A stretch of 56,323 nt of DNA, taken from Gracilaria domingensis (taxonomy: Eukaryota > Rhodophyta > Florideophyceae > Gracilariales > Gracilariaceae). The notes beneath the pieces were generated by a model, which saw nothing but the letters and a program-made list of their open reading frames with translations, made no database searches and had not been told where the DNA came from. The position numbers and the translations under genes are program-made. The stretch is from NCBI GenBank assembly GCA_022539475.1, contig VCMS01000347.1:60689-117011 (forward strand), in the 5' to 3' direction. Below, one piece after another: positions 1 through 52,648 of the stretch. Each line of letters opens with the position of its first letter. The stretch's first letter is position 1.

Positions 1-188
1 GCACATATCTACACTACTCTTCTAGAATTACTTAATTCTAAATCTATCGAGACACTAGACTAATTGTCCTGTCCAATCCTGCGCTTGCGCGTCCCACGTG
101 GTACAGTAGACACACGTGCCCGGGAGCTCGTGACCTCACCACCTTGGTCTTGTAGAGCCCCCGTTGATCTGGGCCGAGCTATACTACA
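1..188 (-). repeat. E1 3' LTR (partial, cut by window start)
   Basis: This stretch repeats 11151-11325. The last ~120 bases match closely (differences include single-base insertions in CACCTTGG versus CACTTGG and GGGCC versus GGCC). The first ~60 AT-rich bases differ by several indels. The plus-strand end ACTACA at 188 is the TG start of the LTR read on the coding strand, and a polypurine tract abuts it. Confidence 0.9.
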
Positions 189-200
189 GACCCCCCTCCT
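189..200 (-). other. E1 polypurine tract
   Basis: On the coding (minus) strand this reads AGGAGGGGGGTC directly before the TGTAGT start of the 3' LTR. It would be the plus-strand priming site for reverse transcription. E2 has an equivalent tract at 43324-43336. Confidence 0.8.
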
Positions 201-1176
201 ACCGACAGGCACGCCCCGTGGCTGCGAAGGTCCCACGGCGTTTGCCGCCTTTTCACCAAACGGTCGTCGGCGCGCATCGCCTGGCGCACGGCGCGTCTCG
301 CGATGACGCGAAGATGGCGCGGTGCACGGCGCGTTCGCCACATGCACTGCAGCGCCATTACCCACGCCGCCGTACCCCTCTGTGGTAGGTGCGATCGTAC
401 CTTACGTCCCTCGTGGTATTGGAACGCGAAACCCGCGAACCGCGACCATTCAGGTTGATCTTGTCGCGCGCCTGGTACCACGTGTTGTCTTCGCCTCTTT
501 GGTCCCTCCCGGAGGAGTCCGTCACTCCATCTTCCCCTGTCCGTCCTCCCCCTGGGCGGGTTAGTCCGGCTTACCAGTTGGTTTCGAGCCTCCCTTCGGT
601 GGGGTTCGCAGTTGTCAACCGATCGGCACACCGCCCCCTCGTGGTGTCGCTCCTATTCTCTGTGGCCACTTGGTCTTGTGCCGTACTGAGGTGATACCTC
701 GTTGGTTCCGACACGTACTGTCTCTCCGCTTGAGTGAGGGCGCCACTGGGGTGTCCGTTGCCTGGGCGGCCGCGTCGAGGAGACTCCTGCCCGTGGCTCT
801 TCAGACTTCGTGACCGGTACCGGTGCTGACGCCGCTTCTACCTAGTGGTCTGCCTCATCGGGGTGTTCAGGCTTGCTTCAGGTCCAGCCGAGGGGTTTAC
901 CCGACTGCGTGGCGTTCAGCGCCCCTCCACCTGGTTCCTCGCGGTCTCCTTCCGTCCCTTAGGTTCCCTCTGGGGTGGTTGTACCCTCCCTGGTTCACGG
1001 AACCCGTCCAGCCGGCGCACAACCCTGGTCATTTCACGGTGTGTCAGCTCGCTCGAGCGGCGTGCCCGTTCTCTGTGACCCTCCGGTTTCATCTAGTCAT
1101 CCAATTGGTGGTGTTCCTCTCTCGGTTGGTATCCTCCGTGGCACGCTCTCGCTCCAACTCGCGCCTTTTATACCTC

Positions 1177-3900
1177 ATGGGTGATCAACCCGCTTCCCCA
1201 ACGGGGTGGTCGATGACGTTCGAACGCCGTGAAGACGGTGCCGAGGAGGGCATCGCGCGCGCCCTTCCCGTTGTGGTGACCCCCGGGGGTGAGACGGCGC
1301 CGTTTCAATCGAATTACCACGTGGTTGACTCTTCGCAGCCCTGTTTGCCGTCCCAGACCGGTACACCTGTGTCCTTTCCATCGGGCGCCGAGGCTCCCGT
1401 GGAGGCCAACCACTTGGTATTGGAGGAGCCGCACTTCGACCCTATAAAGGGATATTCGGCTTCTGAAGTCTCTCCCTCGGCGGAGGTCAACCGTTCGGTT
1501 CGCGAAACTGTTGCCTCCAGGTCGAGATGTCTGGCAAGACCCTGGGGTAGCGCGCGGCCGCGAGGTGGCATGTTCAAGCCTAACACGCGGTCGAGTACGC
1601 GTTCTCGTCAAGACCCTTACGGTCGCGGTGGGTATGATCCCTACGCAGCCGCCGCGGGCCCGAGCAACGTTAACCCCTCTTGCGGTGGCCGGTACGGTGG
1701 AGGCTCAACAGCTGAATCCTCATGACCTTAATAGGACGCACGGGCAGCCGCATGCCCACTATGTGGCACGCTTTGCCGATATCTCCGCCGAATTGGTCGC
1801 TCTGGGGAACTGGCCTTTCCACATCAGTTCCTCACTCTGTCCCTTGCGGTTCCGCCACATGGGTCTCACGCAGTATACCGCAATTGCCCGTTGGGATTGT
1901 CGCCGGTTGGAGGCGGTGCCTATGGCACCTCCTCCACCACGCAAGGCGAGAAGCAGAGCCGGTTCGGTCGACAACAGTGTTTCCATGCGCGGCAGCGACA
2001 ACGAAGTTTCTATACTACATCCCGTGGCCGTACCGTCGGATCTCCCCTTCATCCGCTGCGATGGGAGGTCCACTACTTCCGCCGTTTGGTAGATATCCTT
2101 CACCGCTTGGACGAACCTGCTACGCACATCGAGGTCGATCTGGAGTACGTCGCGTTTGAGCGCCCTTTAGACACCAATTATTGGACTGACCGTGGGAGGT
2201 GGGCGACCGATGCGATGGCTGAGAGCCGTGTTCGTCACCGTAACAACCGTACGCGGACCATGTTCCTGTTCCACAACGTTGAGTATTGGTCGCAGAGCGA
2301 CCACAACCGCCGGACATGGTATGTCAATCGACCCTCTTGGTGGACCACTATGAAGTATGTCAGTGGCTGGGAAGTGCCGACCCCGCCGGTCCTTGCGTAC
2401 TTTGGTAGTAGCATCTCCCTCGAGAGGAACAACGCCTATGCCGTTTGGTCGGTCGCGCGCAGCGAGTGGGCCGTCATGGTGGCTATCCTCGCCCTTCAGG
2501 CTTCCGTGGAAGGTGTGACTTGGGACACGCGCTGCCCTGACAAGTCTGTCGGGATCAGCGGAACTCAACCAGTTGGTCGTATCTTCAATATTCCCAACGA
2601 TGTGGTCGGCGACATTCGTGCCATGGGGCTCTCCAACATCGTGGAGGGCACCAAATATACTGCGCAGCAGTTGGATGGCTACCTCACTGCGGTAAGTAAC
2701 CACAATTGGGGGCCTGAACAGGGTTGGGATGTCTACGACCCGGAGGTTCATAGCATCGTGCCTCTCCAACAGCAGCACATGGCTGGCGAAGACCCATTTG
2801 GTAATGACGATACCGTGATGGTGGCTGCCGAGAACTATGAGTCCCCCGCATTGCCTCCGTCGGCACCTGTACAGGCTACTCCTCCGACCAGCGTGGCTGC
2901 GCCTGTTCCAAGTGGTCCGGCGAACCCTCAGGCGGCTGCTCACCCTCCCGGACGGGCTGCCCAGGGGCCTCTTCGGGTTGGTTTCCAGTCGCTTCCGGTG
3001 AATCCGGTGCCCCCTGGTGGTGATAGTGGCGCGATACGGAGCGCTCTGGCTCGTCTCAACCACGCCTCGATGGTGCACTTCAACCGTCCTGGTCCCAATG
3101 ATATCCTCACCGCTGTGGATACTCTTACCAACTTGCTCCCCGTGGTTGCTCACCACGAGCGGCGCACTTCTGAGCTGCGACAGTTCCGCGACTACTTCCA
3201 GCGCAATCTCTACCGTGAGGTGACAGCCTATGTTGGTCAGTTGAGCAACCTTGTGGAAGGCCACGCGCCGTTACATCGACCCCCTGTGGAAAGTTTCAAC
3301 CCGTACGCTTCTGCGTCACAGCAACCTGCGACCCCAATGGTAGGCTTTGGTGGCCTTGGTACGTATCAACTCCCTGGTGGACCTCCTGGTGGTGGTGATC
3401 CTGCGGCACCTTTCCATACTCCGCTTGGTCCTCACAACGTTCCTCTTCCTCCAGCAAGTACTGGGACAGGAGCACCAAGTGGTTTCTCAACTGGTTTCCG
3501 TTCGGCTCCGCTTCCGCCGACGTCCGGTGCTCCTAGGCCGCCTACTGGTCTGACCCCCGGTGCAGGGCCGTCTAGTGGTCTTGCTCCTCCGACCTCTGGT
3601 GGCATCCCTCCGTCTAGCTTACCGCCTTCCTTCCATCCACCCACTGGTCCTGCGAATACCATGCCGGTAGTCAGCAGCGGTACCCCTGCGGGACCTGCTG
3701 GTACTTCTGCTCCCTTACCAAGTGGTGGTGCGCCACCGAGCGCGGCTAGCGGCGGGGGCGGAAGCTCCGCCGGACCTATGTCGGTGTCCTCTGGTCGTGG
3801 AGGTTCCGCTTCATCTCGCGGGACCTCCCGTGGACGTGGTCGCGTTCGTGGAACCAGTCGTGGACGCGGACGTGGCCGTGGGTCCTCCAAGGCCTCCTAA
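1177..3900 (+). CDS. E1 antisense gene (aORF), unknown function, frame changes
   Basis: The gene is antisense to gag-pol and tail to tail with pol (153-bp gap). A plausible ATG is at 1177. One frame is open 1177-1725 and again to 3900, but around 1690-2060 another frame carries the coding signal: there L.RFR..G....Y matches the E2 antisense protein. Two frameshifts or small introns are therefore implied. The core (about 2150-2700) has an F.RP motif, PSWW, PP..YFGS and a SEWAVMV segment, all with counterparts in E2. The last ~370 residues are Pro/Gly/Ser-rich and end in an Arg-Gly tail typical of nucleic-acid-binding proteins. No known domain is recognised. An AATAAA follows the stop. A DNA- or RNA-binding accessory protein is inference only. 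Confidence 0.7.
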
Positions 3901-3939
3901 GTCACCTCGTGGTTCCCTCTTCGTGGATTCTTCTCGACT

Positions 3940-3945
3940 AATAAA
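3940..3945 (+). terminator. Polyadenylation signal for the E1 antisense gene
   Basis: An AATAAA lies 40 bases after the aORF stop at 3900 and is followed by T-rich sequence. It supports a real plus-strand transcript ending between the antisense gene and the 3' end of pol. Confidence 0.5.
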
Positions 3946-4052
3946 GTGTCTTGCATTGTGTTCTCTGATCTTCTTTTGTTTTCCTGTTAGGTTAGTTAGT
4001 TAGCTTTTCGTGTAGCGTGGCGTTTAACGGCTTCGATAACCCCCCCCCTTCC

Positions 4053-7000
4053 TTAGCGACGCGTACCACGCGAAGCAATACCAGTTGGTGGGGGCGTTCG
4101 CCCTTGTTTGCGCCAGTATCGGATGATGAAGTTGTTAGGGATATGACCAGGTGGTTCCATAGAGTCGTGCTCGGGCGACCATCCATACCATCTTACCCGG
4201 TAGCGCATACCCTTTGTGGTGTGTTCGTGACCTACAATGGTGTCAATGGCGCACTCCTGAGTGTCTACTTGAGGGTGTGACTCTTCCATTTGGTCATGGG
4301 GTGCGTGGCTCCCCGTGGGTGGTGTGACCCGTTGGTCTTGCCTAGGCTCGATCTCCTGTGCCGCTTGGGTCGTGGGGTCAGCCGTTACGGCTCTGGTGGA
4401 AGGTTGACCGCTCGGCTGACTCATCATAGGAGGGGGTATGGGAGACGTTTGCTCCCTCTCCGCTTCCTGCTGCGTTGGCTCACCTATTGGTTGTGCATTC
4501 GCTGTCGTCGGTTGTGCGGCCTTGACAATCCTGTCGATGGAGACCGTGTTCTCCAAACCTTCCATTATGACCGTAGCGGTATGCTCGTCGGAGCGAATCA
4601 CCTTGTATGGTCCCGTGGACTTGGGTAGTAGTTTAGAATTGATATCCTCCTCAAGGCGGATGTCCTCTTCCATCTCCGCTGGGGTTGGTCGCTTACCTTT
4701 TGGTGGCACGTCGAGGAAGACCATGTCTCCTGCTACCACTTTGGTCACTTTGCTCACCGTTCGGTCATAGTCCGCTTTATACCGTTCTTGGGCTGCTGTC
4801 ATCTTAACTTTGGCAGCAGCCAAAGCGGCGCGTAACTTCTGGAGTATGTCTCTCTTGACCTTCGTCGGTGTGAGTGTCCCGGCCGCTTCCGAGCGGTCAG
4901 GTCCGGGCTGGACGATAATACCATGTGGTGTTCGCGAAAGTACCAGGTCGAATGGGGTTGTTTGAGTGACCCTGTGGACCTGGAGGTTGTACGCATATGT
5001 CAATGGTTGGACATACTCCGACCATGTGGTTTGGTGCTCTTCGACATAGTGCCGTAGGCGTGCCACTAGGGTCTTATTGAAGCGTTCCACTTGGCCGTTT
5101 GTTTGCGGATGATAGGCCGTGGTAAAGTAGTGCTTGACCCCTAGCATTGTACAAACCGCCTCGAAGAACTTAGAAGCTAGGTTCGAACCGTTATCGGTCA
5201 GTAGGTACATGGGAGCACCGTACGGGTAGACCCAATTCTCCAGGAAGGCTGTCGCTAGTGTCGTTGCCGTTTGGTTCTTCAGAGGTATGGCTCTGGTGAG
5301 CTTTGTGAACCTGTCGGTTATGACTACTACAAAGCGATAACCCTCTGAGGTCTTGGGCAGGGGCCCCAGTATGTCGATTGCTACGAATTCCAGGGGCCCC
5401 GCCGCCGGGAATAGCTTTAGGTACTTCCTGTGCTTCGCCACACCACCTCGGGTCTTAATGCACGAATTGCATTGCGCCACATAGGTATATACATCGTTAG
5501 CCATATGCGGCCAGTAGAATTGCCTCCGAAGGGTATAGTACAACCGCGTGGCTCCAGGGTGCCCCGAAAGCCGTGGATTGTGTGACAGATATAACACCCT
5601 TTGTCTTAATGACTCAGGTACGACCTTCTGGAGAGATCCGTCTAAAGGTGAGCGTCTGATGAGGTACCCATTGTGGTCGACGTCGAAATGAGAATCCTTC
5701 CTTCCAAGTACGTCAGCGAGCGTTTTGCACAACCTATCGGTCGACTGTTCGCGTAAGAATTCCTCACGGGTGATTGGAGCGTGTTCCCCTTCCTCCACAG
5801 GAAGGAGGGTCTCCACTACCACTTGGTACGTACTGTCATCATGCCAATATCCCTTCAGAACTTCATTGACCTCGTGGTTAGCTAGTTCTATAGTAAAGCA
5901 TGGGATGTCGTCGTCCACTGGGTCAGTGTCCAATCCTTCGGTATTCAACCGGGACAATGCATCCGCCACTCGGTGCTTGACCCCGGGGCGGTACTGCACA
6001 TCGTACTCAAACTCCGAGAGTCTCAGACGCCATCGGGCCAGACGACCCGATGCGTCCGCCAAGCCTAATATCCACCTCAAGGAGTCGTGATCCGTTCGGA
6101 GCGTGAAGCGCACACCATATAGGTAAGGACGTAGCATGAGCATGCTCCAAACAACCGCTAGGCATTCCTTCTCCGTTACGGTGTAGTTCTGCTCCGCTTG
6201 GTTAAGAGCTCTACTCCAATACCCAATTGGTGCGAGCTTGCCGTCCTCCTGTTCCTGCATTAGGCAGCAACCTATTTGGGCGTCCGACGCATCCGTGTCC
6301 AGTGTATACGGGAGTCCCGTTTTGGGCAATGCCAGTACCGGTGGGGAGAGAAGCGCTGCTTTCAATGTATAGAACGCCTCTACCTCGTCCTCTTCCAGGT
6401 GGTCAAAGTGTGTGGGCTGCCCCTTCTGCAACCTCCGGTTCAAGGGTGCGGCTATCTTTGCAAAACCCTTGATGAACCGCCGGTAGACGTTGCATAGACC
6501 TATAAAGGATCGTATGTCCGTCTGCGACGTAGGGAGCTTCGCTTCCTGTACCGCTCGGATATTCCGTTTGGTCACTTCGAGTTTCCCGGGGCTTATTGTA
6601 TGCCCTAGGTACTCTACCTCTTGGTTGAAGAACATACACTTTCGTAGTTTGAGGGTCACGCCTGCCTCTTGTAGCAACTGCAGTACCACTTGGACGTGCG
6701 AGAAGTGCTCCTCTATGGACCTCGAGTAGATGACTACGTCATCTATGTATACCAATGCGGTTGTCCACTTCACTTTAGACAGTATGATGTCTAACGCCCT
6801 TTGGAAGGTAGCGGGGGCGTTTCTTAAACCAAACGGCATGCGTAAGAAGCGATACAGGCCTGCGTGGCATGTAAACGCAGTCTTATCACGGTCACCCTCT
6901 GGTATTTCGATCTGCCAATACCCGCAGTTGGCGTCCAGTGTGGTAAAGATGTTCGCATTTCCTAGGGAGTCGATGCATTCATCCATCCTCGGGATGGGGT

Positions 7001-8495
7001 ACGAGTCCCTTACCGTTACGGCATTAAGTTTTCTGTAGTCAATACAGAACCTCATACGGGTCTCTCCTCGTTTTTGGACTAGCACTACAGGGCTAGCCCA
7101 TTCCGAGTTTGCCGGTTCTATAACCCCCTCGCGAAGCATCCGCTCTACCTCCTCCAGCTCTACCTCACGGGCCTTATGTCCCGCGCGGTATGGCTGTTGG
7201 TGGATGGGACGGGAGTCCGGTTTGAGGTCAATCCTGTGCTGGGTGGCCTTAATGGCTCCCAGCTTACCCGACCACATGGTACTGAATGGCTCCAGGAGTC
7301 CAAGGATCCGAGCTCTGAGCTCTTCCCCTTCAAGTCCTATATTCACCTCCGTCTTCCAATTGGTCACTGGGTCGAGCTCCAGTTTCTGGTCTTGTCGCTC
7401 AGCTAGTCGCTGCACCATATGGTCTGTTCGCGACGAATTGACCGAATTGACACTGCCCCCCCCTTCCTTAGCATCCACGACCTCGTGGGACCATTGTGGT
7501 ATAATCGTAAAGATCGTACGGGGAGCCGGTAAGGCAAGACCAATTACGGTGTGTTTTGGCAACTTGACCGGGCGGTTGCTGAAGTTACTGAGGTAGACCT
7601 GAAACGGTTTTGTCGGTATGTTGTCGACTATACCATTCGCCATTAAGGTCATGTGTCGTTCGGCCAACCGTGAATGGTTCTGAATGGATAACAGGCCAGG
7701 TTGTTGGCATGTGACCTTCACTACCAAGTGGTTCATAGGCGGTATTGTTACCGCCTTTGCCAATCGCACCTTGTTGGAGAGTGTGTTTTCCGGGACCGGT
7801 TGGTGTCGAGTGCGGTTCTCTTTCGGAGAGGCACCCTTGTGGTTACCAATAATGGCGATCCGGGGGCCATTATGGAACAGAACTGTCTTAGAACGTGGAA
7901 AAATTGCCCTGACATGCTGGTCTATAAAGGTTGTGCCGAGGATACAGTCTGTTGCCAGTTGGTTAACGACTATGAAGCGAACTCGGACCCTCATGGTGTC
8001 AATCAATACCATTATGGTAAGCGCTCCCATGACGGTTAGTGGTCTGTTGTTGGCGTCAACCAGTGGGTTAGTTAATGTACATGGCTGAAGCTTATTAAGT
8101 TGTCTGTTAGTTAATAGTTTGGCATTCACCAGATTGGGTCCTGCCCCGGTGTCCAGGACAGTGACGCATGGTACCAAGTGGTTAGAAGTAAACCCGAGGG
8201 TGATGTTTACCTTATAGTTACTATGCTTGAGAAAGCATATCGGTTCGGTGCCGTCCATGAGGCTCTCCTCCCCTGTAACCAATGGGTAATTGTCCATACT
8301 TGCACCACTTGGTTCTGGAAGGCCTTCCGTCTTCGGACAGTTGGGAAGGCCTCTATCCCAACTGTTCGGCGTTTTCCGCCTGCGGGGCGGGATCCGTTTG
8401 GTCCTGCTCCGTGACGAGGTGTACCTGATGAGGTGTGGCTGCATTGGGTCGCGCATTTGCGTGTCCCGTGCCTGCGCTCCGTGCCGGGGGCCCAA
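4053..8495 (-). CDS. pol: E1 Pol: protease, reverse transcriptase, RNase H, integrase, chromodomain
   Basis: A 1480-codon open frame. An aspartic protease with DTGA is near residue 114. The RT (about 470-640) has FCIDYRKLNAV and the catalytic YIDD near 583. RNase H (about 735-860) has TDAS, a catalytic Glu and the TDH motif. The integrase has an HHCC zinc segment near 960-1010 and a DDE core with AIDILGPL, LTDNGSN and HPQTNGQVERFN. A chromodomain lies at about 1395-1455 (YRVRWYGWSPEHDSMEP). The first codon of the open frame is TTG, so Pol is presumably made by frameshifting from gag. The two frames overlap at 8353-8495, with pol in the +1 frame relative to gag, as in yeast Ty3. All catalytic residues seen are intact. 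Confidence 0.95.
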   Translation of the reverse strand: MGPRHGAQARDTQMRDPMQPHLIRYTSSRSRTKRIPPRRRKTPNSWDRGLPNCPKTEGLPEPSGASMDNYPLVTGEESLMDGTEPICFLKHSNYKVNITLGFTSNHLVPCVTVLDTGAGPNLVNAKLLTNRQLNKLQPCTLTNPLVDANNRPLTVMGALTIMVLIDTMRVRVRFIVVNQLATDCILGTTFIDQHVRAIFPRSKTVLFHNGPRIAIIGNHKGASPKENRTRHQPVPENTLSNKVRLAKAVTIPPMNHLVVKVTCQQPGLLSIQNHSRLAERHMTLMANGIVDNIPTKPFQVYLSNFSNRPVKLPKHTVIGLALPAPRTIFTIIPQWSHEVVDAKEGGGSVNSVNSSRTDHMVQRLAERQDQKLELDPVTNWKTEVNIGLEGEELRARILGLLEPFSTMWSGKLGAIKATQHRIDLKPDSRPIHQQPYRAGHKAREVELEEVERMLREGVIEPANSEWASPVVLVQKRGETRMRFCIDYRKLNAVTVRDSYPIPRMDECIDSLGNANIFTTLDANCGYWQIEIPEGDRDKTAFTCHAGLYRFLRMPFGLRNAPATFQRALDIILSKVKWTTALVYIDDVVIYSRSIEEHFSHVQVVLQLLQEAGVTLKLRKCMFFNQEVEYLGHTISPGKLEVTKRNIRAVQEAKLPTSQTDIRSFIGLCNVYRRFIKGFAKIAAPLNRRLQKGQPTHFDHLEEDEVEAFYTLKAALLSPPVLALPKTGLPYTLDTDASDAQIGCCLMQEQEDGKLAPIGYWSRALNQAEQNYTVTEKECLAVVWSMLMLRPYLYGVRFTLRTDHDSLRWILGLADASGRLARWRLRLSEFEYDVQYRPGVKHRVADALSRLNTEGLDTDPVDDDIPCFTIELANHEVNEVLKGYWHDDSTYQVVVETLLPVEEGEHAPITREEFLREQSTDRLCKTLADVLGRKDSHFDVDHNGYLIRRSPLDGSLQKVVPESLRQRVLYLSHNPRLSGHPGATRLYYTLRRQFYWPHMANDVYTYVAQCNSCIKTRGGVAKHRKYLKLFPAAGPLEFVAIDILGPLPKTSEGYRFVVVITDRFTKLTRAIPLKNQTATTLATAFLENWVYPYGAPMYLLTDNGSNLASKFFEAVCTMLGVKHYFTTAYHPQTNGQVERFNKTLVARLRHYVEEHQTTWSEYVQPLTYAYNLQVHRVTQTTPFDLVLSRTPHGIIVQPGPDRSEAAGTLTPTKVKRDILQKLRAALAAAKVKMTAAQERYKADYDRTVSKVTKVVAGDMVFLDVPPKGKRPTPAEMEEDIRLEEDINSKLLPKSTGPYKVIRSDEHTATVIMEGLENTVSIDRIVKAAQPTTANAQPIGEPTQQEAEREQTSPIPPPMMSQPSGQPSTRAVTADPTTQAAQEIEPRQDQRVTPPTGSHAPHDQMEESHPQVDTQECAIDTIVGHEHTTKGMRYRVRWYGWSPEHDSMEPPGHIPNNFIIRYWRKQGRTPPPTGIASRGTRR
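8333..8369 (-). other. Hairpin at the gag stop, possible frameshift-stimulating structure
   Basis: ACAGTTGGGA (8337-8346) pairs with TCCCAACTGT (8356-8365) across a 9-base loop, with partial pairing beyond. It straddles the gag stop codon (8353-8355) at the end of the gag/pol overlap. A role in frameshifting is inference. Confidence 0.4.
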
Positions 8496-10620
8496 ATATA
8501 TCCTGGTGGTTCTGCTGGCGAGCAGTCAGGAGAGCGTTCCTGTTCTGCGGAGCCACACTTGGGCACGCTGTTGCCAAGTGGTGGGGCGACAAACAGAACC
8601 AACAGAGGAGATTGCCGGTTGTGGGGTCCTTCATTGCGAGCGACGACGCGCGCGATGGAGGACGGCTTCCAGTAGGTACTGCACTCCGTTGCTGCGGGTA
8701 TGGTCCTTGTTCACCATATTGCTTGAATGGTACCGCTAGGACCGGGCTGACCGGTACGGATACCTGTGATGGTGGAGCTGAGGTTTGTCTTGAGGGTGGC
8801 TCGCTGGATAGCGAGCTGGACCAAGAGGTATTACCGTGCGATCGAGTTGTCGGTTGCGCATGCACCAAGTGGACTGGGTGACCCTGGGAGGCGTATTGTG
8901 TGGACGCCTCCTCCGTAGTGGTCTCCTCTTCCTCTACGTCAAACACTGACCGCCTGGTCTTTCCTTTCTCCTTCGATGGTTTGCCGAGTGGTGCGGAGTC
9001 TTTCCTGGCCCCTGACCGAACGGTGTCGCCTAGTCCCTGTGCATGGCGGGCTAGTGCGTTGTAGTCGACCGTGCGGTTGGTAGCTAGGTAGTTACGAACC
9101 TGTGATCGGATAGACTTCGCCACGTTGTCGGCGTACATCGATTTCAACCTTTTAGTAGTAAAGACGCTTCCACAGCGGGAGGCTAATGCCCATAAGGAGC
9201 GAGCGAATTCCAATTCGGTTTGTCCCGCGCACTGGCGGTACGCAAGCACCTCTGCGTACGCCTCCTGGATTACCTCATCGGTCGCGTAGGTTTCCAGTAG
9301 GAAGTTAACCACCTGTGGGTATGTTGTCAACATTTCCGTTTGGTCTTCGTCCACCGCCATGGTGTTCCCTTGGAGGCGGCTGTGGAGCAACGCTCCAGCC
9401 TGACCAGTTAGGTAAAATTGAAACAGCCACATGGCTGCTGCCTCTGAAAACCCATTCTGATCACAAGCGATCTTGAAACTTTGAAGGAAATCAATGATCG
9501 CAATAGGGTCATCCCCGCTAAAGCGAGTTTCACCCAGTTGGAAACGAAGCTTCCTATGATGCTTCGTTATCTTCTGAGCTACCTCTTTGGTATACTCAGC
9601 CTGTCTGTTCTCTAACCTATAGGTACGATAGTCAACCGCTTTGGTGAATAAATCATTGAGCGGCGTAAGCACCTCTAGGTCAGTCTCCTCGTCGGAAGTT
9701 GAGTCCGAATCGTTATACCTTTTGGTCTTACCCTTGCGGGGATTCTTTCCTTTCTTCTTGCGAGAGTCCTTCCTCTTGCGTCGTGAACCTGTACGGTCGT
9801 CGTCTCCTGACGAATCCGAATCGGTGTCTGAGGACGAAGAGTCCGAGTCCGACCGGCGACTCTTTCTCTTTCCCCTTTTGGTTTTCTTCTTCTTACCATT
9901 TGGTTTACGTCGACGCTCGTCTCCTGAGCTCGACGAATCTCCATCAGGGTCTCCACCACTTGGTCCTGACGGAGCTACACCAGTAGGTTGGGGGAGGTAA
10001 ACGTACCTCGGGCCCTCCATCCCTGGAGGCTCTGCCACTTTCCCCATGCGGTCGATAAATCCTTCACCAGTCGGTTTTGTAGGAAGGTTGGGGTGGAGAA
10101 TACCAAGTGGTTTGGTGGCGTCTACTGCAGGCGGGGGAGCTTGCTTCATGAGCGCGGCCTGGGCCACCATCTCAGGTTGAAGCTTAGCCCCCTGCTGCTG
10201 CAGAGCCAGCATAACCAATCGGTCGATGTGTCCTCGCACCTCGTTTTCGAGGTACTGTAACACCACCACAGGTACCTTGTCGAGGACCTCCTGGGAGGCT
10301 CGATCAACTACCACTCGGGTGACCTCGTCCAAGTCCAGTCGCGGTCCGACTGGCACCTCCATTTGGTCTACCACTGGGGTTGTTACAGGAGCGGGCTCCG
10401 CCCTTGCGGAGCCTGCTCCTCCGTCCACTTGGTCAGCCCGGGGAAGGGTCGAGGGGCCCCCAGCCTCTCGGTCTACCTTCTTCCCCCTCGGTGGGCGTTC
10501 CTTCCGAATCAGGTCCTCCGGGTTATCCAACACCGGATAGGACACTGAACCCCGTATGGGGTGACCACTTGGTGGAGCGCTCGGCGCCCTATTTGGGTAG
10601 CGCGCGCCCCGTTTCTCCAT
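8353..10620 (-). CDS. gag: E1 Gag (capsid and nucleocapsid)
   Basis: 755 residues from ATG at 10620. Residues ~225-320 are a Ser/Asp/Lys/Arg-rich low-complexity tract. The following segment (about 350-520) has the FSGDDP...FL pattern of retrotransposon capsids. A perfect CCHC zinc knuckle, CWFCLSPHHLATAC, starts near residue 673. The stop at 8353 lies inside the open pol frame. Gag would form the virus-like particle and package element RNA. No internal stop is seen. Confidence 0.92.
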   Translation of the reverse strand: MEKRGARYPNRAPSAPPSGHPIRGSVSYPVLDNPEDLIRKERPPRGKKVDREAGGPSTLPRADQVDGGAGSARAEPAPVTTPVVDQMEVPVGPRLDLDEVTRVVVDRASQEVLDKVPVVVLQYLENEVRGHIDRLVMLALQQQGAKLQPEMVAQAALMKQAPPPAVDATKPLGILHPNLPTKPTGEGFIDRMGKVAEPPGMEGPRYVYLPQPTGVAPSGPSGGDPDGDSSSSGDERRRKPNGKKKKTKRGKRKSRRSDSDSSSSDTDSDSSGDDDRTGSRRKRKDSRKKKGKNPRKGKTKRYNDSDSTSDEETDLEVLTPLNDLFTKAVDYRTYRLENRQAEYTKEVAQKITKHHRKLRFQLGETRFSGDDPIAIIDFLQSFKIACDQNGFSEAAAMWLFQFYLTGQAGALLHSRLQGNTMAVDEDQTEMLTTYPQVVNFLLETYATDEVIQEAYAEVLAYRQCAGQTELEFARSLWALASRCGSVFTTKRLKSMYADNVAKSIRSQVRNYLATNRTVDYNALARHAQGLGDTVRSGARKDSAPLGKPSKEKGKTRRSVFDVEEEETTTEEASTQYASQGHPVHLVHAQPTTRSHGNTSWSSSLSSEPPSRQTSAPPSQVSVPVSPVLAVPFKQYGEQGPYPQQRSAVPTGSRPPSRASSLAMKDPTTGNLLCWFCLSPHHLATACPSVAPQNRNALLTARQQNHQDIFGPPARSAGTGHANARPNAATPHQVHLVTEQDQTDPAPQAENAEQLG

Positions 10621-10730
10621 TTAGGTAACTGGCGTCGGAGCCAATTGCTTCGGCAACGGGAACCAAACCACTCGGGTATCTCGTGACTTCCAAATCCTCT
10701 CTTCCCAAAACCACTTGGTAATCCACAGAT

Positions 10731-10748
10731 TTCTAGGTCGGGAGACCA
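10731..10748 (-). other. E1 primer-binding site
   Basis: Plus strand TTCTAGGTCGGGAGACCA ends in CCA like a tRNA 3' end, so the coding strand carries its complement next to the 5' LTR. E2 has the identical 18 bases at 52649-52666 in the same place. Read as a tRNA it would have T-stem CTAGG, acceptor TCGGGAG and discriminator A. The tRNA was not identified. Confidence 0.8.
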
Positions 10749-10753
10749 AAATA

Positions 10754-11325
10754 TGTGGTATAGCCGATCGGTGCGAGCTGCTAGTGGGGAGCCCTGCGTG
10801 GGCTCGACCCGGCGGAGGAGTGAAACACGTGACACCTAATAGGTCGGCAGCACCCACCGTTGCCTATAGTGCACGGTGACCAAGTGGTAAATACGCCTGC
10901 ACTGGTGTGCGGCAGGCACGTATAACCCTCGAGGTCAGCAAAACTATTAGAGGACTACTAGACTTACCAATTGGTGACTGTAGAACCGAACTGGTGTCAA
11001 ATTAGTCTAGTTGGTGCTTGACTTTACCATTTGGTGTGGGAGGTTGGCGTCTCGGGGGTTTAGTACACCCGAGCGCCCCTCCGGCTCTCACGGGCCTAGT
11101 GCCACGTGGGCCACCGGGAGGTGCATTTGTGGTGCACCACCCCGGCCACATATCTACACTACCTAGTAATTATTAATTCTAAATTATCGAGAATAGACTA
11201 ATTAGTCCTGTCCAATCCTGCGCTTGCGCGTCCCACGTGGTACAGTAGACACACGTGCCCGGGAGCTCGTGACCTCACCACTTGGTCTTGTAGAGCCCCC
11301 GTTGATCTGGCCGAGCTATACTACA
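10754..11325 (-). repeat. E1 5' LTR (572 bp)
   Basis: On the plus strand it runs from TGTGG, just after the primer-binding site, to CTACA at 11325, where the interrupted integrase reading frame of E3 begins. Positions 11151-11325 match the partial LTR at the window start. Like the E2 LTR it contains CTTGCGC followed by GTCC and CACGTGG. Four CCANNTGG sites lie inside (10880, 10967, 11027, 11278). Confidence 0.85.
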
Positions 11326-39964: not shown

Positions 39965-42341
39965 GATATCGATGAACACGCCCTGGAGGCAACAAGCTTC
40001 GTAGACGGACGCCAAGATGGAAACAGTCTTTGCTCAAGACAGAAGAAGCCTGTTTGTACTTGACCAAGTTACCAGACAAGCGATGATAAAGCTCTACAGA
40101 CAGGCATCACGTGTGCCCTCGTACCATACGAGCCGCATGTACGTGTACTTAGACGTTTGGTACCTGACAACAATCAAGAGTACTTCCAACTGTGAACTCT
40201 ACGCACGGTTCATCTGCCTTGACGTCCCGGTATTGTCCCGGCAACGCATGTCACGCTTACTTTTTGAGTGCCCACCAATGTATGGATTGCATGATGCAAT
40301 CAGTCTGATCGTCGATGCAATTTGCATCGATGGTCAGACCGAGTGTATTGCTGTCAGCTGCAGATGGCAGTCACAGACGGTCACGATAACACCTCCGCAG
40401 TGCAAGTTTGAGGGCCACACACACTGGAGCGGCCATAGCTCAATCGGTAACCACCTTCGTGTGCTTTTTGTGTGAGCTCGGAGTCCTGGGTTCGAATCCC
40501 GACTCTGCTTTGCTCCCCTATCAGTACACCACAATGATCACCGAGGCTTGACGTGAATCTGCAGATCCAGTGTGTGTCTTAGGCACTGCTTCAGAATTTC
40601 AGCGTGCGGCGCCACCATCTGCTAGTGGCGCAAGGCAACAGTGACTTTCTTCTTCGTCTTCTGGAAGCTGCTGAAGCTAAATATGATTCTGGGACTTGAA
40701 GCACCTACCTTCGCGTCTGAAGGCAGAAAATATGCAAACTTATTGAAAGAGTTTAAGAATTAGATTCGTTCCTGCCAGAATTCCATGCAGGGTAAATCGC
40801 ACATCTCGCGAGTCTTGATCAATCATTCTCGATCTTGTATCCTTTACTGACATCAGTTCGCGTCTCCATGTAGCTTCCCTCCCCATTTTGTTTTCGTTCT
40901 CGAGCTACAGACGTGGGTAAGCCCATTCTCGGTTTAGACTTCCAATGGATCTCCTTCATTGTAGGCTCGCTTTCAATCCTGTCGGCTTGCAGAAAGGCGT
41001 TTTCTCAACGCTGCTAGCTTTTCGCCAATCCAATATCACTCTATTCACTCTCAACATGCATTTTTATACGGTGCAGCATTCCAGGCAACTCCAGAGGGCC
41101 TACGTGCATTTCCAGAAACTAGTACCCCTCTCACGATAATGACTTTGCCCTTTTCGATTTTCGTCAATCGCCTGAGAAGGGAGCCAGAGTCATGGGGTCT
41201 TTGTCATTATATTTTTTGAACCCTCGTACAGATCACTTAAGCATGACTGAATCGTTCGTGAAGAGCGAAACCAAGCCTTGTTTCAACATTACCTTGAACT
41301 ATATCTTTTCTTTGAAATTAATTTTCGTCTTTCTAACTGAAGATTTGGATATAAAAGCAGATTATTGTTGTCGACACAAGAAGCAAAATCTTTAGTTTAT
41401 ACTCTCAATCAATTTACTTTTGTCTTGTACCAATAAAACAAAAAAAGATTAGTTTGGTTCGCGAAATTGCTTAAAAGTATATTCGACTGAAGAATAAAAT
41501 AGTACATTGACGAATAAATGTAAGCCTTCTCTTTTCTGTAAACTATTTTATTGTAAAGAAGATTTTAAAAAGGCAGATAGAAATGCTATGATTATGGCTT
41601 TCATAGTTGTAGAGAAATCGACAAAAACTAAATATGCACTTGTATTGCGCAATAAATCCACTTTCAAATACTTTCTTATACGCTTCTCCCAAAGAGGCCC
41701 GTAAAGGGGCTGTATGACACGGCGCATTTCTATAAGAACTTCAGTGAATTGAGTGCATCCAGAATAAACAAAAAAGCCAGCCGTCCAAATATACTCCAAT
41801 AAACACTATTCTTTTTGTTGGGGGTAACGACATTCTCAAAGAAAAACAGAAACTTCCTTACATTGACGGCAGAACCATCGAAGTAAATCACACCAAAATC
41901 AGAAAACCCACACCCTCCTTGAGAGTACCATGCAGACGCCATTTCTTGTAATCAGACAGAACGGCGCGAGTGATAAAAACCCCAAACAAAGCAAAACAAT
42001 ACAAACGTCCGAAATTACTAGCCTAAACGGCAAAAAATAATACGGTAGCTCCGCAATAAACGCAACAGCCGAACCAAAAAACTTAAACAACACGGCCTGA
42101 CTCAATATTTACATCAAAACCAATACCAAACAAAGAGAAGCAGACCGATCATCTAGTAGACGTACGGCACGTTTCACGTTCGTAAGATGAACAACAACTT
42201 TGGTACGTTTCCAAGCGCCGAAATGTGTACACGAACCCAACAGAGGGCCACACACAACAAATTCAACGAGGAGGCCGGGCGACCGAGCCGCCTGTAGATA
42301 AAAAGAAAGAAAGGGGGAAGTAGGTCGATGGCAGGGAAACA
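39965..42341. other. Intergenic, increasingly AT-rich, no supported gene apart from a tRNA-like unit
   Basis: Contains the tRNA-like element at 40427-40515. From about 41200 on it is AT-rich with overlapping short minus-strand frames (41548-41799, 41730-41942, 41899-42105). These hint at a decayed retroelement gene but show no diagnostic motif. Confidence 0.4.
40427..40515 (+). repeat. tRNA-like unit with pol III A and B boxes (SINE head or tRNA pseudogene)
   Basis: A box TAGCTCAATCGG (40436-40447) and perfect B box GGTTCGAATCC (40489-40499) are spaced about 50 bp. The 5' and 3' ends do not form a seven-pair acceptor stem and the T stem is imperfect, so a working tRNA is unlikely. Confidence 0.6.
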
Positions 42342-43323
42342 TGTGGAGCAAAACCCCAGCAATGGGATCTTATCTCAAGGCGTTCGAGTCCTTGCCCTCT
42401 AGACGAGGTGAACTCAGTGGTGAGCGCTCCAAACACGAATAGTGCGGGTTCGAGACCGCCCGTGGTACGGGATATACCTACGGAGGCTGAGGGGTGAACG
42501 GGCCTATTCCAGGAATCCGGCGAAAAGTGACGGAATGGTCGAGGAGGAAGAGTACCGTAGAGCGGTGTAAGCCCTAGGCAAAAAGGGAGAAAGAAGGGAA
42601 ATAGAGGAGGAAAGGGGAGAAATCCCGCGGCGGGACGTGCGGAAAGCGGCAACAGACCCGGCGCCGGGAGACGACGATGTATATTAAGCCCACGCGGCAC
42701 AACTCTATACAGAGACGGAAACGCTACCAATTGTGGTGAAAGCAGTACAACTGCACAAATAAGAAACAAGAACAGTCCGAAGACACGGAATAAAACAGCC
42801 CGAGGGCAAGGCCACAATGGTCAGTATTGCCTGAATAATCCCGAGGGATGAAGCTGAGTCGTACCGTACGCGATGTTTCTCCGGAGGGAGTTGTACACTT
42901 TGCGATGGCGAAACAGTTGAGAGCCGAACTTGGTTACCCTTTACTGAGGGGCGGAGGTGGCCGCGAGGTGACCTCCTTATATCGTAACCGATTACTTAGT
43001 TAAACTAAATTAAAGTAATAAAGTTCCCGCTTGCGCAGGTCCACACACGTGGAAGGTGTGCAACCCGCGGCAGCGGCCAGTAAACTATTCGACAATCATA
43101 ACAAAACATGTGTAAACACACCCATTCCTATACACGCGTACACGCGACCAATACTCATCCGCGCCACGTCATGGCCGACCCCTCAGGGTGCCATACCTCA
43201 ATGCGGCCAAAAGGTATCCCATCAGTGGGCCAATATTCATACCTTCCGAGTACCCGGAACCATTCTTACCAGGGGTTTATGAAAACAATCCCCGTGTATC
43301 GGGCAAGCACGTTTTGCTCTACA
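42342..43323 (-). repeat. E2 3' LTR (982 bp)
   Basis: On the plus strand it runs from TGTGG to CTCTACA, next to a polypurine tract. The first ~450 bp repeat at 52669-53116 with few differences. Like the E1 LTR it contains CTTGCGC followed by GGTCC and CACGTGG. It includes tRNA-like A and B boxes (42411-42457). The flanking 5 bp are AAACA (42337-42341); the partner flank is lost. Confidence 0.85.
42411..42457 (+). promoter_or_regulatory. tRNA-like pol III promoter boxes inside the E2 LTR
   Basis: A-box-like AACTCAGTGGTGAGCGC (42411-42427) and perfect B box GGTTCGAGACC (42447-42457) have tRNA-like spacing, and GCGG/CCGC flanks the B box as in a T arm. Another B-like GTTCGAGTCC is at 42382-42391. 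In the right LTR the B box is mutated. Orientation is opposite to gag-pol and the same as the antisense gene. Confidence 0.5.
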
Positions 43324-43336
43324 TATCCCCCTCCTT
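43324..43336 (-). other. E2 polypurine tract
   Basis: The coding strand reads AAGGAGGGGGATA directly before the TGTAGAG start of the 3' LTR, matching the E1 arrangement. Confidence 0.8.
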
Positions 43337-43403
43337 AGCGCAGGAAACATCCGGTTTGCAAGCGGAGACTCATCAGCGAGCTCGCATATAAGCGTGGTCC
43401 ACC

Positions 43404-45218
43404 ATGGACATATCCGAGATTCCGGTTCCTCGTCACAACGAGACACACGTGCAAACGCACTCAGCTTCTCTGCACTCAGATGATTCAGTACCTGAAGTTT
43501 CTTCTGCGATCGACGATTCGATGAACCCTCACCAGGGCGACGAGCAGCCTTCCCAAACCGGGGTTCCGAACGTTTCGGGTCCCGCAACTCCTGCGACAGG
43601 GTATCTCGGCGGTTTCGCCTCCGCTCCTCTGCCTCAGAGTCAACATTACACGTCTACACCGAGTCCGGTCGACGTCGCGGCGTGGAATTCCGCTCAGGCG
43701 CTGCCCTTGCTGGCGACTCCAGCTGGCTGGATAGCGCGTGAATCGCTCCTTGTTCAAGATCCGACTACCGGAGGAAGCTGGGCCTATTCCAGAGCGCCCT
43801 GGTTTCACCCGACAGCGGTTCGCAACAGTGCGTTGATGGATTCATACACCGAGAACGGTATGCTGCCTGGCGGTCTGCACCGAGATATGGTGGATTCCTG
43901 GGATTGGAGACAGCGCGTGGCGGTTGCACCTCACGTGTTGTCACGAAAACGGGGCGGCCGTGGATACGAAACGCTGGATGAAGCGCGCGCGGCTATGGCG
44001 CGATTGGCGTACTTTCGGAAGGACCGAGCCTCGTTCCCCGAGAGGATCCCCGAGTCATACGGGTTCGACCTTTCCCGGTTCCGAACTTACGGAGAGATCA
44101 AGTATGGCGCGAACCTCGCGGACTTCCAAGCGACGGAAAACTTCCCGGATTCGATGCCGGCGGACATTCTCCTGTTCAACAGGCCTATCCTGCGAGCGGA
44201 GTTCCGATATCTACATCGCCCTTCGGGAGAGGGAAGCTTCTTCGACCGATTGCGAAACGAACGCAAGTGGCGATCCCGGTTCGGGTATCTGATTCCACAC
44301 CAGAACATGGAGGTTGAACGTTTGCGTCCGGACGCACTAGCGGGTCGATTCGCTTCACTCCCATCGTGGTGGGCTCACTATGAGGTACCACGCGGGTGTT
44401 TCGCGGAATTGCCTCCGTGCATCTCCTATGTGGGGTCACGCATTATTGCGAATCCGCACTCGGAGTACTGGATGCTCTTCATCGCCGAATGGGCCGCTCG
44501 CGTTGCCGCGTTTATGCTATGGGAAGCATACGACCAGAACCGTGTTTGGTATTTGCCTCCGAGGTTACGGAATATGATTAGATCACTGGACTTATACACC
44601 GCGCTCGGTTAGGACGGCAACGTCAGCGAGGTCATCAGCCTTATCGATCTCATCGATTCCATTGATTGGAGTACCGTTCCGGCGGAAAACGTCCCCAGGG
44701 GCACTCGCTCGCACTACGACCGTTCGCCAGGGCGAAGACATCCGGGTGCCGGTGACTTCGTGTACTACGATCCCTGGGAGGGAGTTACAGTCCCGAAGGA
44801 GCGGGCTCTCGTCCTACGCGGACTTCCTCGAGTGGTTCCGAGCGATCACCCTATTGGGTTTATGTTTTCCGACAACTATTACTCCGTAGCAGAGGAGGAC
44901 GATCCAATGGTGGATGACACTGTGGAAGACCCGGCAACGGGAGGCCCGTTGGCGGCTTCCGCACGAGTTCCGGTTGTCGGAAGGGCGGCTGCGCCAGTTG
45001 CTCCTATCGGTTGGGGCGTGGGCCCTTCGCAGGGGAATATTGACCCTCGCGTGATAGCGATGCGCAACCAACTCCTCGGACTTGGGGTGCCGGTTCCACC
45101 GGATATGTACGACCTCGGCCAGCTGTTGGCATTGGTAGTGCAGGCCTTCGCGAGTCAGCCTCCCCAAGCGGGGCCGTCCAACCCTGGAGGTGCCGGTCCT
45201 TCGACAGGATGGCAGTGA
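43404..45218 (+). pseudogene. E2 antisense gene (aORF homologue) with one in-frame stop
   Basis: ATG at 43404. One frame is open to 45218 except for a TAG at 44610-44612 (about 604 codons). The N-terminus is Ser/Pro/His-rich. The core (about residues 190-400) has LSRFRTYGEIKYGA, FNRP, PSWW (44361-44372), PPCISYVGS, IAEWAARVAAF and LPPRLRNMIRSL, each aligning in order with the E1 antisense protein. Homology to E1 continues past the TAG (ISLIDLIDSIDW), so the stop is probably a mutation, though readthrough is possible. The C-terminus is Pro/Gly-rich but lacks the Arg-Gly tail of E1. It is tail to tail with the chromodomain frame. Function unknown. Confidence 0.72.
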
Positions 45219-45608
45219 TCCCAACGGTGAGTTCCCTCCATGATGGGCTGTCGTAGGCTCTGCGACCAACGCACTCCGCAATAGCTAGCGGTACAACTTC
45301 TCCTTAGAATGAAATCGACTTCGATGTCACTTCCCTCATAACCGGTTTACGGTTCAACGCTTCTTCGCGTATCGTCATTCCAAGACGATCGTCCAGACTG
45401 CGTGTAGCTTCACGACATGTTCACATGGACCGTTAGACGTTAGTTCGCTTCTTTCCGATAAATCGGCGTCCGTTAGACGGAAATCATCTTTTCTTCTTCA
45501 TCCCTTTGATACTTCCTTCCTTGGGAACAAACCAAACTTCTTGGGAGTACCATCAATGATTCTCCCACAAGTGGGTCCGTCGATTGCCTTTACGACCCGG
45601 CGGCACTG

Positions 45609-45842
45609 TCACCCTACTTGGGCCTTATCCAAATCTGGAGGCAGCGCTAGCCGCTTACGCCGGTAGTAGGTGAGAACCTTCGATCGAGGTAGATGTTCGA
45701 TCGGCTCGAATGTATCCTCCTCAGGGGAGTATCCGTACCAACGGACTTGGTATTCAGTCTCCCCATCGGGGTTCACGACGTGACTCACGATGCGTTCGAT
45801 AACGAATTCCTGTGGGAACACTTCCCGTTCGCGGGCCTCCAT
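45609..45842 (-). CDS. E2 chromodomain, separate from the integrase
   Basis: 77 codons from ATG at 45842. EFVIERIVSHVVNPDGETEY, then QVRWYGYSPEEDTFEPIEHL, is a complete chromodomain with the aromatic residues expected to cage methyl-lysine. In E1 the domain is fused to the integrase; here 1.1 kb without a matching frame lies between it and the integrase tail. It may need splicing, or may have been disconnected by an insertion. Chromodomains steer chromovirus integration to chromatin. Confidence 0.8.
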   Translation of the reverse strand: MEAREREVFPQEFVIERIVSHVVNPDGETEYQVRWYGYSPEEDTFEPIEHLPRSKVLTYYRRKRLALPPDLDKAQVG

Positions 45843-52451: not shown

Positions 52452-52648
52452 ACCTGGCCACGGTGTACCGAACAGCAGTAAGATCAAATTAACAACGAGA
52501 GGTCTCGATACTCCAAAGAGTAAGTAACGAATAACAAATAAAACACTCTAGAGAGTCCACTGTTCCATAGTAGCTTCCCAAAAACCAATTGATCACTAAT
52601 CGTGAGACTCCTCGACAAGAACGAGAACGAAAGAAAGAATCCAACCCG

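What the first reader, a model, noticed from the sequence alone, without database searches (positions are those of the whole stretch)
574..11285. E1 is saturated with an element-specific palindrome, CCANNTGG (consensus ACCANNTGGT)
At least 38 exact copies were found by eye in 11.3 kb where about 2.8 are expected; 19 are CCACTTGG/CCAAGTGG against about 0.3 expected. In the other 45 kb I found only one CCACTTGG/CCAAGTGG (26432). Copies occur in LTR, leader, gag, pol and antisense gene and in several codon phases, so neither coding nor base composition explains them. Arabidopsis VANDAL elements show a precedent: short motifs accumulate in copies recognised by their own VANC anti-silencing protein. 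A comparable system in a retrotransposon would be new. The binding protein is unknown; the antisense gene is one candidate.
Basis: partly seen in the sequence, partly recalled or inferred. Interest (0 to 1): 0.88.

Follow-up and report, generated by a model that had tools for sequence, protein, structure and literature searches.

The report
Retrotransposons saturated with family-specific DNA palindromes
A jumping gene in a red seaweed, and its relatives there, carry dozens to hundreds of tiny mirror-image DNA sites spread through their genes, in patterns that differ between families, and each also carries a reversed extra gene that may make the protein that reads those sites.

Summary
E1 (window 1-11325), a Ty3/gypsy chromodomain element of Gracilaria domingensis, holds 47 CCANNTGG where shuffles average 4-7. 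The better core is ACC-N4-GGT: 63 against 5-8. The excess survives synonymous-codon shuffling in gag, pol and antisense gene. Two E1-lineage antisense genes, 78-80% identical, keep the density (9 and 12 sites; 2.4-2.8 in simulations) although only 5 and 7 of 10 sites coincide.
E1 is one of five families read here that carry a homologous antisense gene; all five have excess palindromes. ACC-N4-GGT is confined to the E1 lineage among them. E2-E4 carry generic Watson-Crick palindromes about 12-13 bp wide. Wobble pairs are as depleted as other mismatches on either strand, so the signal lies in DNA, not RNA.
Best reading: dyad sites read by a dimeric element protein, most likely the antisense product (dN/dS 0.14 against E1; Arg-rich; no PDB match). 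VANC-like in logic, but probably not acting on 5mC: no DNA methyltransferase hit, no CpG decay. Binding and function are untested; the generic pairing of E2-E4 is unexplained.

The parts
1..11325 (.). E1: Ty3/gypsy chromodomain LTR element, gag-pol on minus strand; carries 63 ACC-N4-GGT (85 sites in the union with CCANNTGG)
2..188 (-). left-hand (3') LTR of E1 as far as the window shows it; an N stretch lies directly to the left
   Evidence: 93.1% identity over 189 columns to the right LTR
11148..11325 (-). right-hand (5') LTR of E1
1177..3900 (+). antisense gene of E1, convergent with pol; start at the ATG of 1177 by eye; interrupted in this copy (open frame 1735-3897); uninterrupted 935-codon frames exist in other copies
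4053..8495 (-). E1 pol ORF: RT, RNase H, integrase, chromodomain; a protease-like stretch is below cut-off
8353..10620 (-). E1 gag ORF (named by position; its Pfam hit is weak and below cut-off)
573..582 (.). ACCANNTGGT site
1316..1325 (.). ACCANNTGGT site; in L072/L073 the specified bases are kept while the spacer differs
1409..1418 (.). ACCANNTGGT site, absent at this place in L072 and L073 (turnover)
2568..2577 (.). ACCANNTGGT site conserved in both diverged relatives
3474..3483 (.). ACCANNTGGT site in the antisense gene; still ACC-N4-GGT in both relatives
5818..5827 (.). ACCANNTGGT site in pol
8173..8182 (.). ACCANNTGGT site in pol
9955..9964 (.). ACCANNTGGT site in gag
10710..10719 (.). 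ACCANNTGGT site in the leader, the region with most ACC-N4-GGT per kb (9.5)
11277..11286 (.). ACCANNTGGT site in the right LTR
42339..53117 (.). E2: second Ty3/gypsy element, gag-pol on minus strand; 380 palindrome centres (arm/gap 4/3, 4/4, 4/5, 5/3) where 125 are expected; one ACC-N4-GGT
42339..42790 (-). E2 LTR (96.2% identical to the other)
52666..53117 (-). E2 LTR
43404..45215 (+). E2 antisense gene, homologous to that of E1; one in-frame stop after 44609
47456..51115 (-). E2 pol ORF (RT, RNase H, integrase)

Best explanation
These red-algal Ty3/gypsy elements carry a self-recognition code: short dyad-symmetric DNA sites written along the element, through LTR, leader, gag, pol and antisense gene, with half-sites and spacings that differ between families (E1 ACC-N4-GGT, often ACCANNTGGT; E3 mostly ACC-N6-GGT; E2 and E4 looser C-rich/G-rich palindromes 12-13 bp wide). 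Shown: the sites exceed shuffled controls in five families and synonymous-codon controls in E1, E2 and E3; density is maintained with turnover in two E1 relatives; the symmetry in E2-E4 is Watson-Crick only, so it belongs to DNA; each of the five families read carries a homologous antisense gene; that gene is under purifying selection in the E1 lineage. Inferred: the antisense protein binds the sites as a homodimer and coats copies of its own family. Inferred, less sure: the coat keeps the element expressed or accessible, as VANC does for VANDAL DNA transposons, but through transcription or chromatin rather than removal of 5-methylcytosine.
For: E1 counts against Markov and synonymous controls. 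Of 25 spacings tried for ACC..GGT in E1, 4, 5 and 6 stand out: 63, 34, 21 against 8.2; the next highest is 14, at spacing 22. Two E1-lineage antisense genes, dS 0.77-0.93 and dN/dS 0.14 from E1, hold 9 and 12 sites where 0 of 2000 substitution simulations reach that; 54/60 and 56/60 specified bases are kept against 78-80% identity overall. Families: arm 4/gap 4 palindromes 184 vs 44.8 in E2, 109 vs 37.6 in E3, 105 vs 33.8 in E4, 35 vs 12.7 in E5 (L004); ACC-N4-GGT is at background in E2-E5 (1, 8, 3, 1; expected 3.1, 5.2, 2.9, 1.5). Palindromes cover 40%, 35% and 30% of the bases of E2, E3 and E4 where 13% is expected. Antisense proteins are homologous between E1, E2, E3 and E5; E4 was found by homology to E2. 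22 of 53 listed E1-type matches cover all 935 codons without a stop. Residues 241-300 of the E3 product are net +10, with 8 basic positions kept in at least 13 of 15 rows. Pairing in E2-E4: Watson-Crick 1.86x, G.U 0.71x, A.C 0.68x, other mismatches 0.69x. Over 30 E2 loci, shared variants in palindrome arms are 0.75-0.83 of matched expectation and singletons 0.97-1.01. The remnant at 11326-14000 and the tail 53118-56323 are at background.
Against: No binding was tested, and no known DNA-binding fold or Pfam domain was found in the protein. A single dimeric protein predicts one preferred half-site on both sides, yet in E2-E4 all four base pairs are raised symmetrically; that is not explained. 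ACC-N6-GGT is raised in E1, E2, E4 and E5 as well as in E3 (21, 15, 9, 6; expected 8.3, 3.0, 2.9, 1.5), so only ACC-N4-GGT is strictly lineage-specific. A control spacing (4/11) is also raised in E3 (55 vs 36.9), in the control repeats L001 and L005 (21 and 22; about 11 expected) and in host 34-42.3 kb (54 vs 36.0), though far less than the true spacings in E2-E4. The conservation signal in E2 copies is modest (z -1.7 to -2.3 over six non-independent references), and in the cruder pooled test other spacings also gave low P values (0-3, 4-5 and 17-19 bases). Variation among 30 near-identical E1 copies was too scarce (6 shared and 1 single variant at 107 site positions; 153 and 170 at 3879 others). 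Half-site tests in the E1 lineage were mixed (P 1e-5 to 0.85), and dN/dS between the two relatives is 0.33.
Confidence: 0.55

Rival explanations
1. The palindromes are read by an element protein, but not the antisense product: for example integrase, the chromodomain tail or Gag binds them during nuclear import or integration.
For: Pol and Gag also differ between families; E1 pol ends in a chromodomain. No binding data separate the candidates.
Against: Ty3/gypsy elements in general lack such sites, to my knowledge (recalled). What the five families share beyond gag-pol is the antisense gene, whose product has a basic conserved stretch.
Confidence: 0.17
2. The sites are DNA mini-hairpins (single-stranded cDNA or cruciforms) selected as structures, not as protein sites.
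For: In E2-E4 all four Watson-Crick pair types are raised about twofold and wobble pairs are not; arms of 4-5 with gaps of 3-5 look like stem-loops.
Against: Polarity: left arms with CC far exceed left arms with GG (78 against 18 in E2). In E2, arm 4/gap 4 stems are extended outward no more often than chance (33 of 184). E1 prefers one sequence, with A..T across a 2-base gap. Compensatory double changes are not enriched, though counts are small.
Confidence: 0.15
3. RNA hairpins in the genomic RNA, for example dispersed packaging signals bound by Gag.
For: Palindromes would form stem-loops in RNA of either strand; spacings of 4-8 suit loops.
Against: G.U pairs are as depleted as non-pairing mismatches, whichever strand is taken as the RNA: 509 seen/721 expected and 501/733, with Watson-Crick 2908/1566.
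Confidence: 0.04
4. E1 accumulated E-boxes (CANNTG) for a host bHLH factor.
For: CCANNTGG contains CANNTG, and CANNTG is raised overall (75 vs 44.8).
Against: CANNTG without the C/G flanks is not raised (28 vs 38.4) and ACC-N4-GGT without the E-box is (38 vs 7.5). The other families' palindromes are not E-boxes.
Confidence: 0.05
5. Mutation or composition bias (template switching, codon use) makes the palindromes.
For: GGT and ACC are common in E1 (352 and 265; 224 and 166 expected from base composition).
Against: Markov-3 and synonymous shuffles do not reproduce the counts. Singletons in E2 copies fall in arms at the expected rate while shared variants are fewer. One other repeat family and one remnant in the same genome lack the pattern.
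Confidence: 0.04

Closest known systems
VANDAL DNA transposons and VANC anti-silencing proteins (Arabidopsis)
   Same: Transposon-encoded protein family; short motif accumulated in the element's own copies; motif differs between related families
   Different: VANDAL is a DNA transposon; VANC motifs lie in non-coding tandem repeats, and the word palindrome does not occur in the main text of PMC5735166; VANC carries DUF1985/DUF287 and induces loss of DNA methylation (PMC5735166, PMC10398659, passages). Here: LTR elements, dispersed sites also in coding DNA, dyad symmetry, different protein, no sign of 5mC
Retand/Grande/RIRE2 antisense ORFs between pol and the 3' LTR (aORF-3R, often TRP28)
   Same: Antisense extra gene at the same place; proposed nuclear or DNA-binding role; function unknown (PMC7264820, PMC11963269, passages)
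   Different: TRP28 (PF04195) is reported only from flowering plants; the red-algal protein has no such Pfam hit, and no saturating target motif is mentioned in the passages read
Antisense-gene proteins of Gracilariopsis chorda (BWQ96_10156, BWQ96_03215)
   Same: Homologous proteins, 39-40% identity to the E3 product
   Different: Named only 'hypothetical protein'; their DNA context was not available here
DNA uptake sequences and similar genome-saturating words of bacteria (recalled, no call)
   Same: Short word saturating coding and non-coding DNA and marking 'self'
   Different: Bacterial chromosomes, not transposons; one word per species

Membership tests
Ty3/gypsy chromovirus | pol order RT-RNase H-integrase with C-terminal chromodomain | tested here: met
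   RVT_1, RT_RNaseH, Integrase_H2C2, rve, Chromo (25.7 bits, cut-off 25.1) in E1; E2 pol showed no chromodomain
VANC/VANDAL system | DUF1985/DUF287 protein | tested here: not met
   no such match up to E 10 in three antisense proteins; domains named
VANC/VANDAL system | carried by a VANDAL (Mutator-like) DNA transposon | tested here: not met
   LTR element with gag-pol
VANC/VANDAL system | motifs in tandem repeats of non-coding regions | tested here: not met
   sites in pol, gag, antisense gene, leader and LTR, several codon phases; no tandem repeat in E1
VANC/VANDAL system | family-specific motif accumulated in own copies | tested here: met
   for ACC-N4-GGT in the E1 lineage; less strict for E2-E5
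VANC/VANDAL system | protein binds the motif | not testable with these tools
   needs EMSA, DAP-seq or ChIP-seq
VANC/VANDAL system | acts by loss of DNA methylation | tested here: inconclusive
   no PF00145 hit, CpG o/e 0.92-1.17 in E1-E4, little CpG bias of C>T singletons (0.280 vs 0.245 in E2 copies, 0.028 vs 0.034 in E1 copies); argues against, not a direct methylome
Retand-type antisense aORF (TRP28) | antisense ORF between pol and 3' LTR | tested here: met
Retand-type antisense aORF (TRP28) | TRP28 domain PF04195 | tested here: not met
bHLH E-box array | CANNTG raised irrespective of flanks | tested here: not met
RNA hairpin packaging signals | wobble pairs tolerated in stems | tested here: not met
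   (E2-E4)

The most novel reading that the evidence does not exclude
The antisense genes define a new class of self-recognition proteins of LTR retrotransposons, with no fold match in the PDB, each co-evolving with a private palindromic code written through the coding sequence of its element: a site every 133 bp on average in E1 and one excess palindrome per 42-64 bp in E2-E4, in a genome without evident cytosine methylation. The generic Watson-Crick symmetry of E2-E4 would then be the record of many successive or coexisting homodimer specificities.
Probability: 0.4. Interest if true: 0.92.

Novelty: new variant of a known kind. Interest (0 to 1): 0.8.

Why it matters
The function of antisense genes in LTR retrotransposons is stated to be unknown in the two papers seen on them (passages). 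A family-specific site code points to a testable job, recognising the element's own DNA, and provides natural families to swap sites and proteins between. If true, TE-encoded self-recognition arose in LTR elements as well as in VANDAL DNA transposons, works without cytosine methylation, and can constrain the coding sequence of a whole element.

Tried and rejected
Rejected or uninformative: a viral-contig scan with the antisense alignment found no relative. A homology search with the interrupted window ORF found nothing; the E3 protein did. PDB and BFVD fold searches of two AlphaFold models (BFVD for the first only) gave no match. Simple half-site conservation tests were mixed. The first conservation test (ratio 0.53 for differences, 0.66 for shared variants) was inflated by choosing palindromes in the reference copy; after excluding positions private to the reference the shared-variant ratio was 0.75-0.83. 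Compensatory changes among E2 copies: too few, no excess. Site-spacing periodicity in E2: no helical (10.5 bp) period; longer periods were not interpretable with that test. Singleton and shared variants inside E1 sites: too few. Paper searches for a precedent or background: (listings only), with passages of PMC5735166, PMC10398659, PMC7264820, PMC11963269, PMC10388701, PMC10538959 and PMC12459048 read by term. None of the listings or passages described such a code, but the library lacks most subscription papers and preprints.
Full report
Setting. The window is G000:C347:60689-117011 of a 77.9-Mb, 680-contig genome. A kinase gene in it (29270-32677, minus strand) is 100% identical, over 43% of the query, to a protein recorded as Gracilaria domingensis on a 117,011-bp contig, the length of C347. 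The host is therefore that red alga. E1 runs from the left edge of the window (an N stretch lies before it) to 11325, with short LTRs at 2-188 and 11148-11325 that are 93% identical. Its gag (8353-10620) and pol (4053-8495) are on the minus strand, and pol carries RT, RNase H, integrase and a chromodomain that just passes its cut-off. Between pol and the left LTR lies a gene on the plus strand, convergent with pol.

The observation. CCANNTGG occurs 47 times in 1-11325 and 14 times in the remaining 45 kb. Shuffles keeping 1-, 2- or 3-base context give 3.9-6.6 on average and never more than 15 in 200 runs each. Scanning 3-base and 4-base palindromic words with gaps 0-12 puts ACCA-N2-TGGT (25 seen, 1.0 expected) and ACC-N4-GGT (63 seen, 8.2 expected) first. 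Over 25 spacings ACC..GGT stands out at 4, 5 and 6 (63, 34, 21; expected 8.2; the next highest is 14 at 22), while GGT..ACC never exceeds 12. Shuffling synonymous codons within frames gives 8.7, 3.0 and 1.6 sites in pol, gag and the antisense ORF, where 25, 15 and 8 are seen; the maxima of 300 shuffles are 18, 8 and 6. Sites lie in several codon phases, and the density is highest in the leader (9.5 ACC-N4-GGT per kb). No tandem repeat was found in E1. The E-box reading fails: CANNTG without the C/G flanks is not raised, and ACC-N4-GGT without the E-box is.

Is it maintained? E1 copies are young: 40 of 136 candidates were scored, and these are 99-100% identical over 1 kb, so they say little; variants at sites are too few. 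Diverged members of the lineage exist (77-93% in protein). Two of their antisense genes were fetched, 78% and 80% identical in DNA to E1. They hold 9 and 12 ACC-N4-GGT. Of the 10 E1 sites in aligned columns, 5 and 7 coincide, and the rest are gains and losses. Placing the observed substitutions at random, matched by type and codon phase, leaves 2.4 and 2.8 sites on average; none of 2000 runs reaches the observed totals, and the kept numbers have P 0.018 and 0.0015. Specified bases are kept at 54/60 and 56/60, spacer bases at 32/40 and 34/40, a difference in the expected direction but on small numbers. dN/dS of the gene between these relatives and E1 is 0.14 with dS 0.77-0.93; between the two relatives it is 0.33 with dS 0.25. 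The half-site test is mixed, with P from 1e-5 to 0.85 depending on direction and word.

E1 is not alone. E2 (42339-53117) in the same window has an antisense gene in the same place, and its product matches that of E1 (BLASTP 4e-6). A search of the genome with it scored 103 of 1174 candidates, ranging from 100% to 53% identity. ACC-N4-GGT is at background in E2-E5 (1, 8, 3, 1; expected 3.1, 5.2, 2.9, 1.5). E3 is richest in ACC-N6-GGT (27 seen, 5.2 expected), but this word is raised in the others too (E1 21/8.3, E2 15/3.0, E4 9/2.9, E5 6/1.5). E2 has 184 inverted repeats of arm 4/gap 4 (44.8 expected), 141 of 4/5 (45.9) and 52 of 5/3 (11.9). E3, E4 and E5 show 109, 105 and 35 of arm 4/gap 4, with 37.6, 33.8 and 12.7 expected; E5 is not clearly raised at 4/5 (17 vs 13.0). 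In E1 arm 4/gap 4 is only mildly raised (83 vs 47.5; all). Counting distinct centres of four arm/gap types, E2 has 380 (125 expected), E3 284 (100), E4 219 (94), E5 63 (34) and E1 195 (130); palindromes cover 40% of E2 where 13% is expected.

Controls. The remnant at 11326-14000 and the tail of the window are at background. An unrelated multicopy repeat (L001, L005) is at background at 4/4 and nearly so in distinct centres (39 vs 31), but raised at the control spacing 4/11 (21 and 22, about 11 expected). Host 34-42.3 kb is slightly raised at 4/4 (49 vs 35.0) and equally so at 4/11 (54 vs 36.0). E3 is also raised at 4/11 (55 vs 36.9), well below its 4/3 to 4/5 excess. GC-rich host DNA is raised at every gap because of CG runs.

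What kind of palindrome? In E2-E4, flanking and inner pairs around CC..GG at spacings 6-8 are Watson-Crick about 1.2 to 2.5 times as often as independent bases would give, with all four pair types contributing at the best spacings. Taking 12- and 13-mers with three of four pairs matched and looking at the fourth, Watson-Crick pairs are 2908 against 1566 expected, G.U in gag-pol-sense RNA 509/721, G.U in antisense RNA 501/733, and purine-purine and pyrimidine-pyrimidine each 990/1439. Wobble pairs are thus treated like any mismatch on either strand, which argues strongly against selection on RNA stems and points to DNA. The correlation falls away beyond 12-14 bp. Arms with CC on the left exceed those with GG (78 against 18 for E2 arm 4/gap 4; 4-11 and 5-13 at gaps 9-14), and arms with neither are also raised (88 against 20-26). 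Preferred half-sites differ, loosely: A-C-C-A in E1, A-C-C in E3, C-C-C-G with some T first in E2 and E4.

Selection in E2. Thirty loci (3.1-3.6 kb usable) were compared with six of their number as reference, leaving out reference-private positions and matching trinucleotides. Variants shared by two or more copies are 0.75-0.83 of expectation in palindrome arms (z -1.7 to -2.3 against circular shifts). Variants private to one copy, mostly made after insertion, are 0.97-1.01. Control spacings give 0.86-1.23 for shared variants. The effect is modest, and the six references are not independent. It is what selection on the replicating lineage, without a mutation bias, would leave.

The candidate reader. 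The antisense proteins have no Pfam match up to E 10 other than one at 0.28, far below its cut-off. Relatives in public proteins are two 'hypothetical proteins' of Gracilariopsis chorda and ten without a name. AlphaFold gives a confident core (pLDDT 89.7, pTM 0.90, 378 residues, 14 sequences) with no PDB match at E 0.001 or better. Residues 241-300 of the E3 product are strongly basic, and eight Arg/Lys positions there are kept in at least 13 of 15 proteins. Of the 53 listed E1-type matches, 22 run through all 935 codons without a stop; the window copy is interrupted.

How it probably works, and how sure. The cheapest reading is a homodimeric element protein that recognises its own family's DNA. 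The antisense product fits because it is the shared extra gene and because its clades and the site types seem to change together (E1 apart; E2 and E4 alike; E3 different again), but this rests on five families. What the bound protein does is inferred by analogy with VANC. Removal of cytosine methylation is unlikely here: no PF00145 hit in the genome, while the same search rings in 10 of 14 control genomes (prokaryotes by the names listed), and CpG o/e 0.92-1.17 with little CpG bias of C>T in copies. Activation of transcription, exclusion of repressive chromatin, or packing of element DNA remain open. The generic symmetry in E2-E4 does not follow from one fixed half-site. It may reflect many homodimer specificities over time, or DNA hairpins.

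Known or new. Antisense ORFs between pol and the 3' LTR are known in plants, their function is said to be unknown, and TRP28 proteins are predicted to bind DNA (passages of PMC7264820 and PMC11963269). VANC shows the logic of a transposon protein with a family-specific motif (passages of PMC5735166 and PMC10398659). I found no account of an LTR element whose coding sequence is saturated with its own palindromes in searches, which cover open-licence papers only.

Noticed in passing
window 11326-13480: E1 abuts a remnant whose frame 11328-11834 reads like the end of another Ty3-type integrase (by eye; no Pfam hit); it lacks the palindromes and serves as a control.
   Followed up: partly
window 53738-54642: Three head-to-tail copies of a roughly 372-bp unit beside the right end of E2.
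   Followed up: no
G000 as a whole: No DNA methyltransferase (PF00145) hit and no CpG decay in repeats: Gracilaria domingensis may lack cytosine methylation.
   Followed up: partly
L001, L002, L003, L005: A multicopy repeat with long frames that line up between the loci, each holding ACCACTTGGT, apparently at the same place by descent; not related to E1 by eye.
   Followed up: no
L070:486-2336 and relatives: The antisense-protein core is a confidently predicted fold with no PDB match.
   Followed up: partly
G000, PF07727 search: 150 scored copia-type reverse transcriptase matches out of 764 candidates; many long open frames, several on the same contigs (for example C435, C344).
   Followed up: no
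window 20400-33500: Host stretches with long GCG/CGC runs up to 73% GC next to transposon stretches near 50-56% GC.
   Followed up: no
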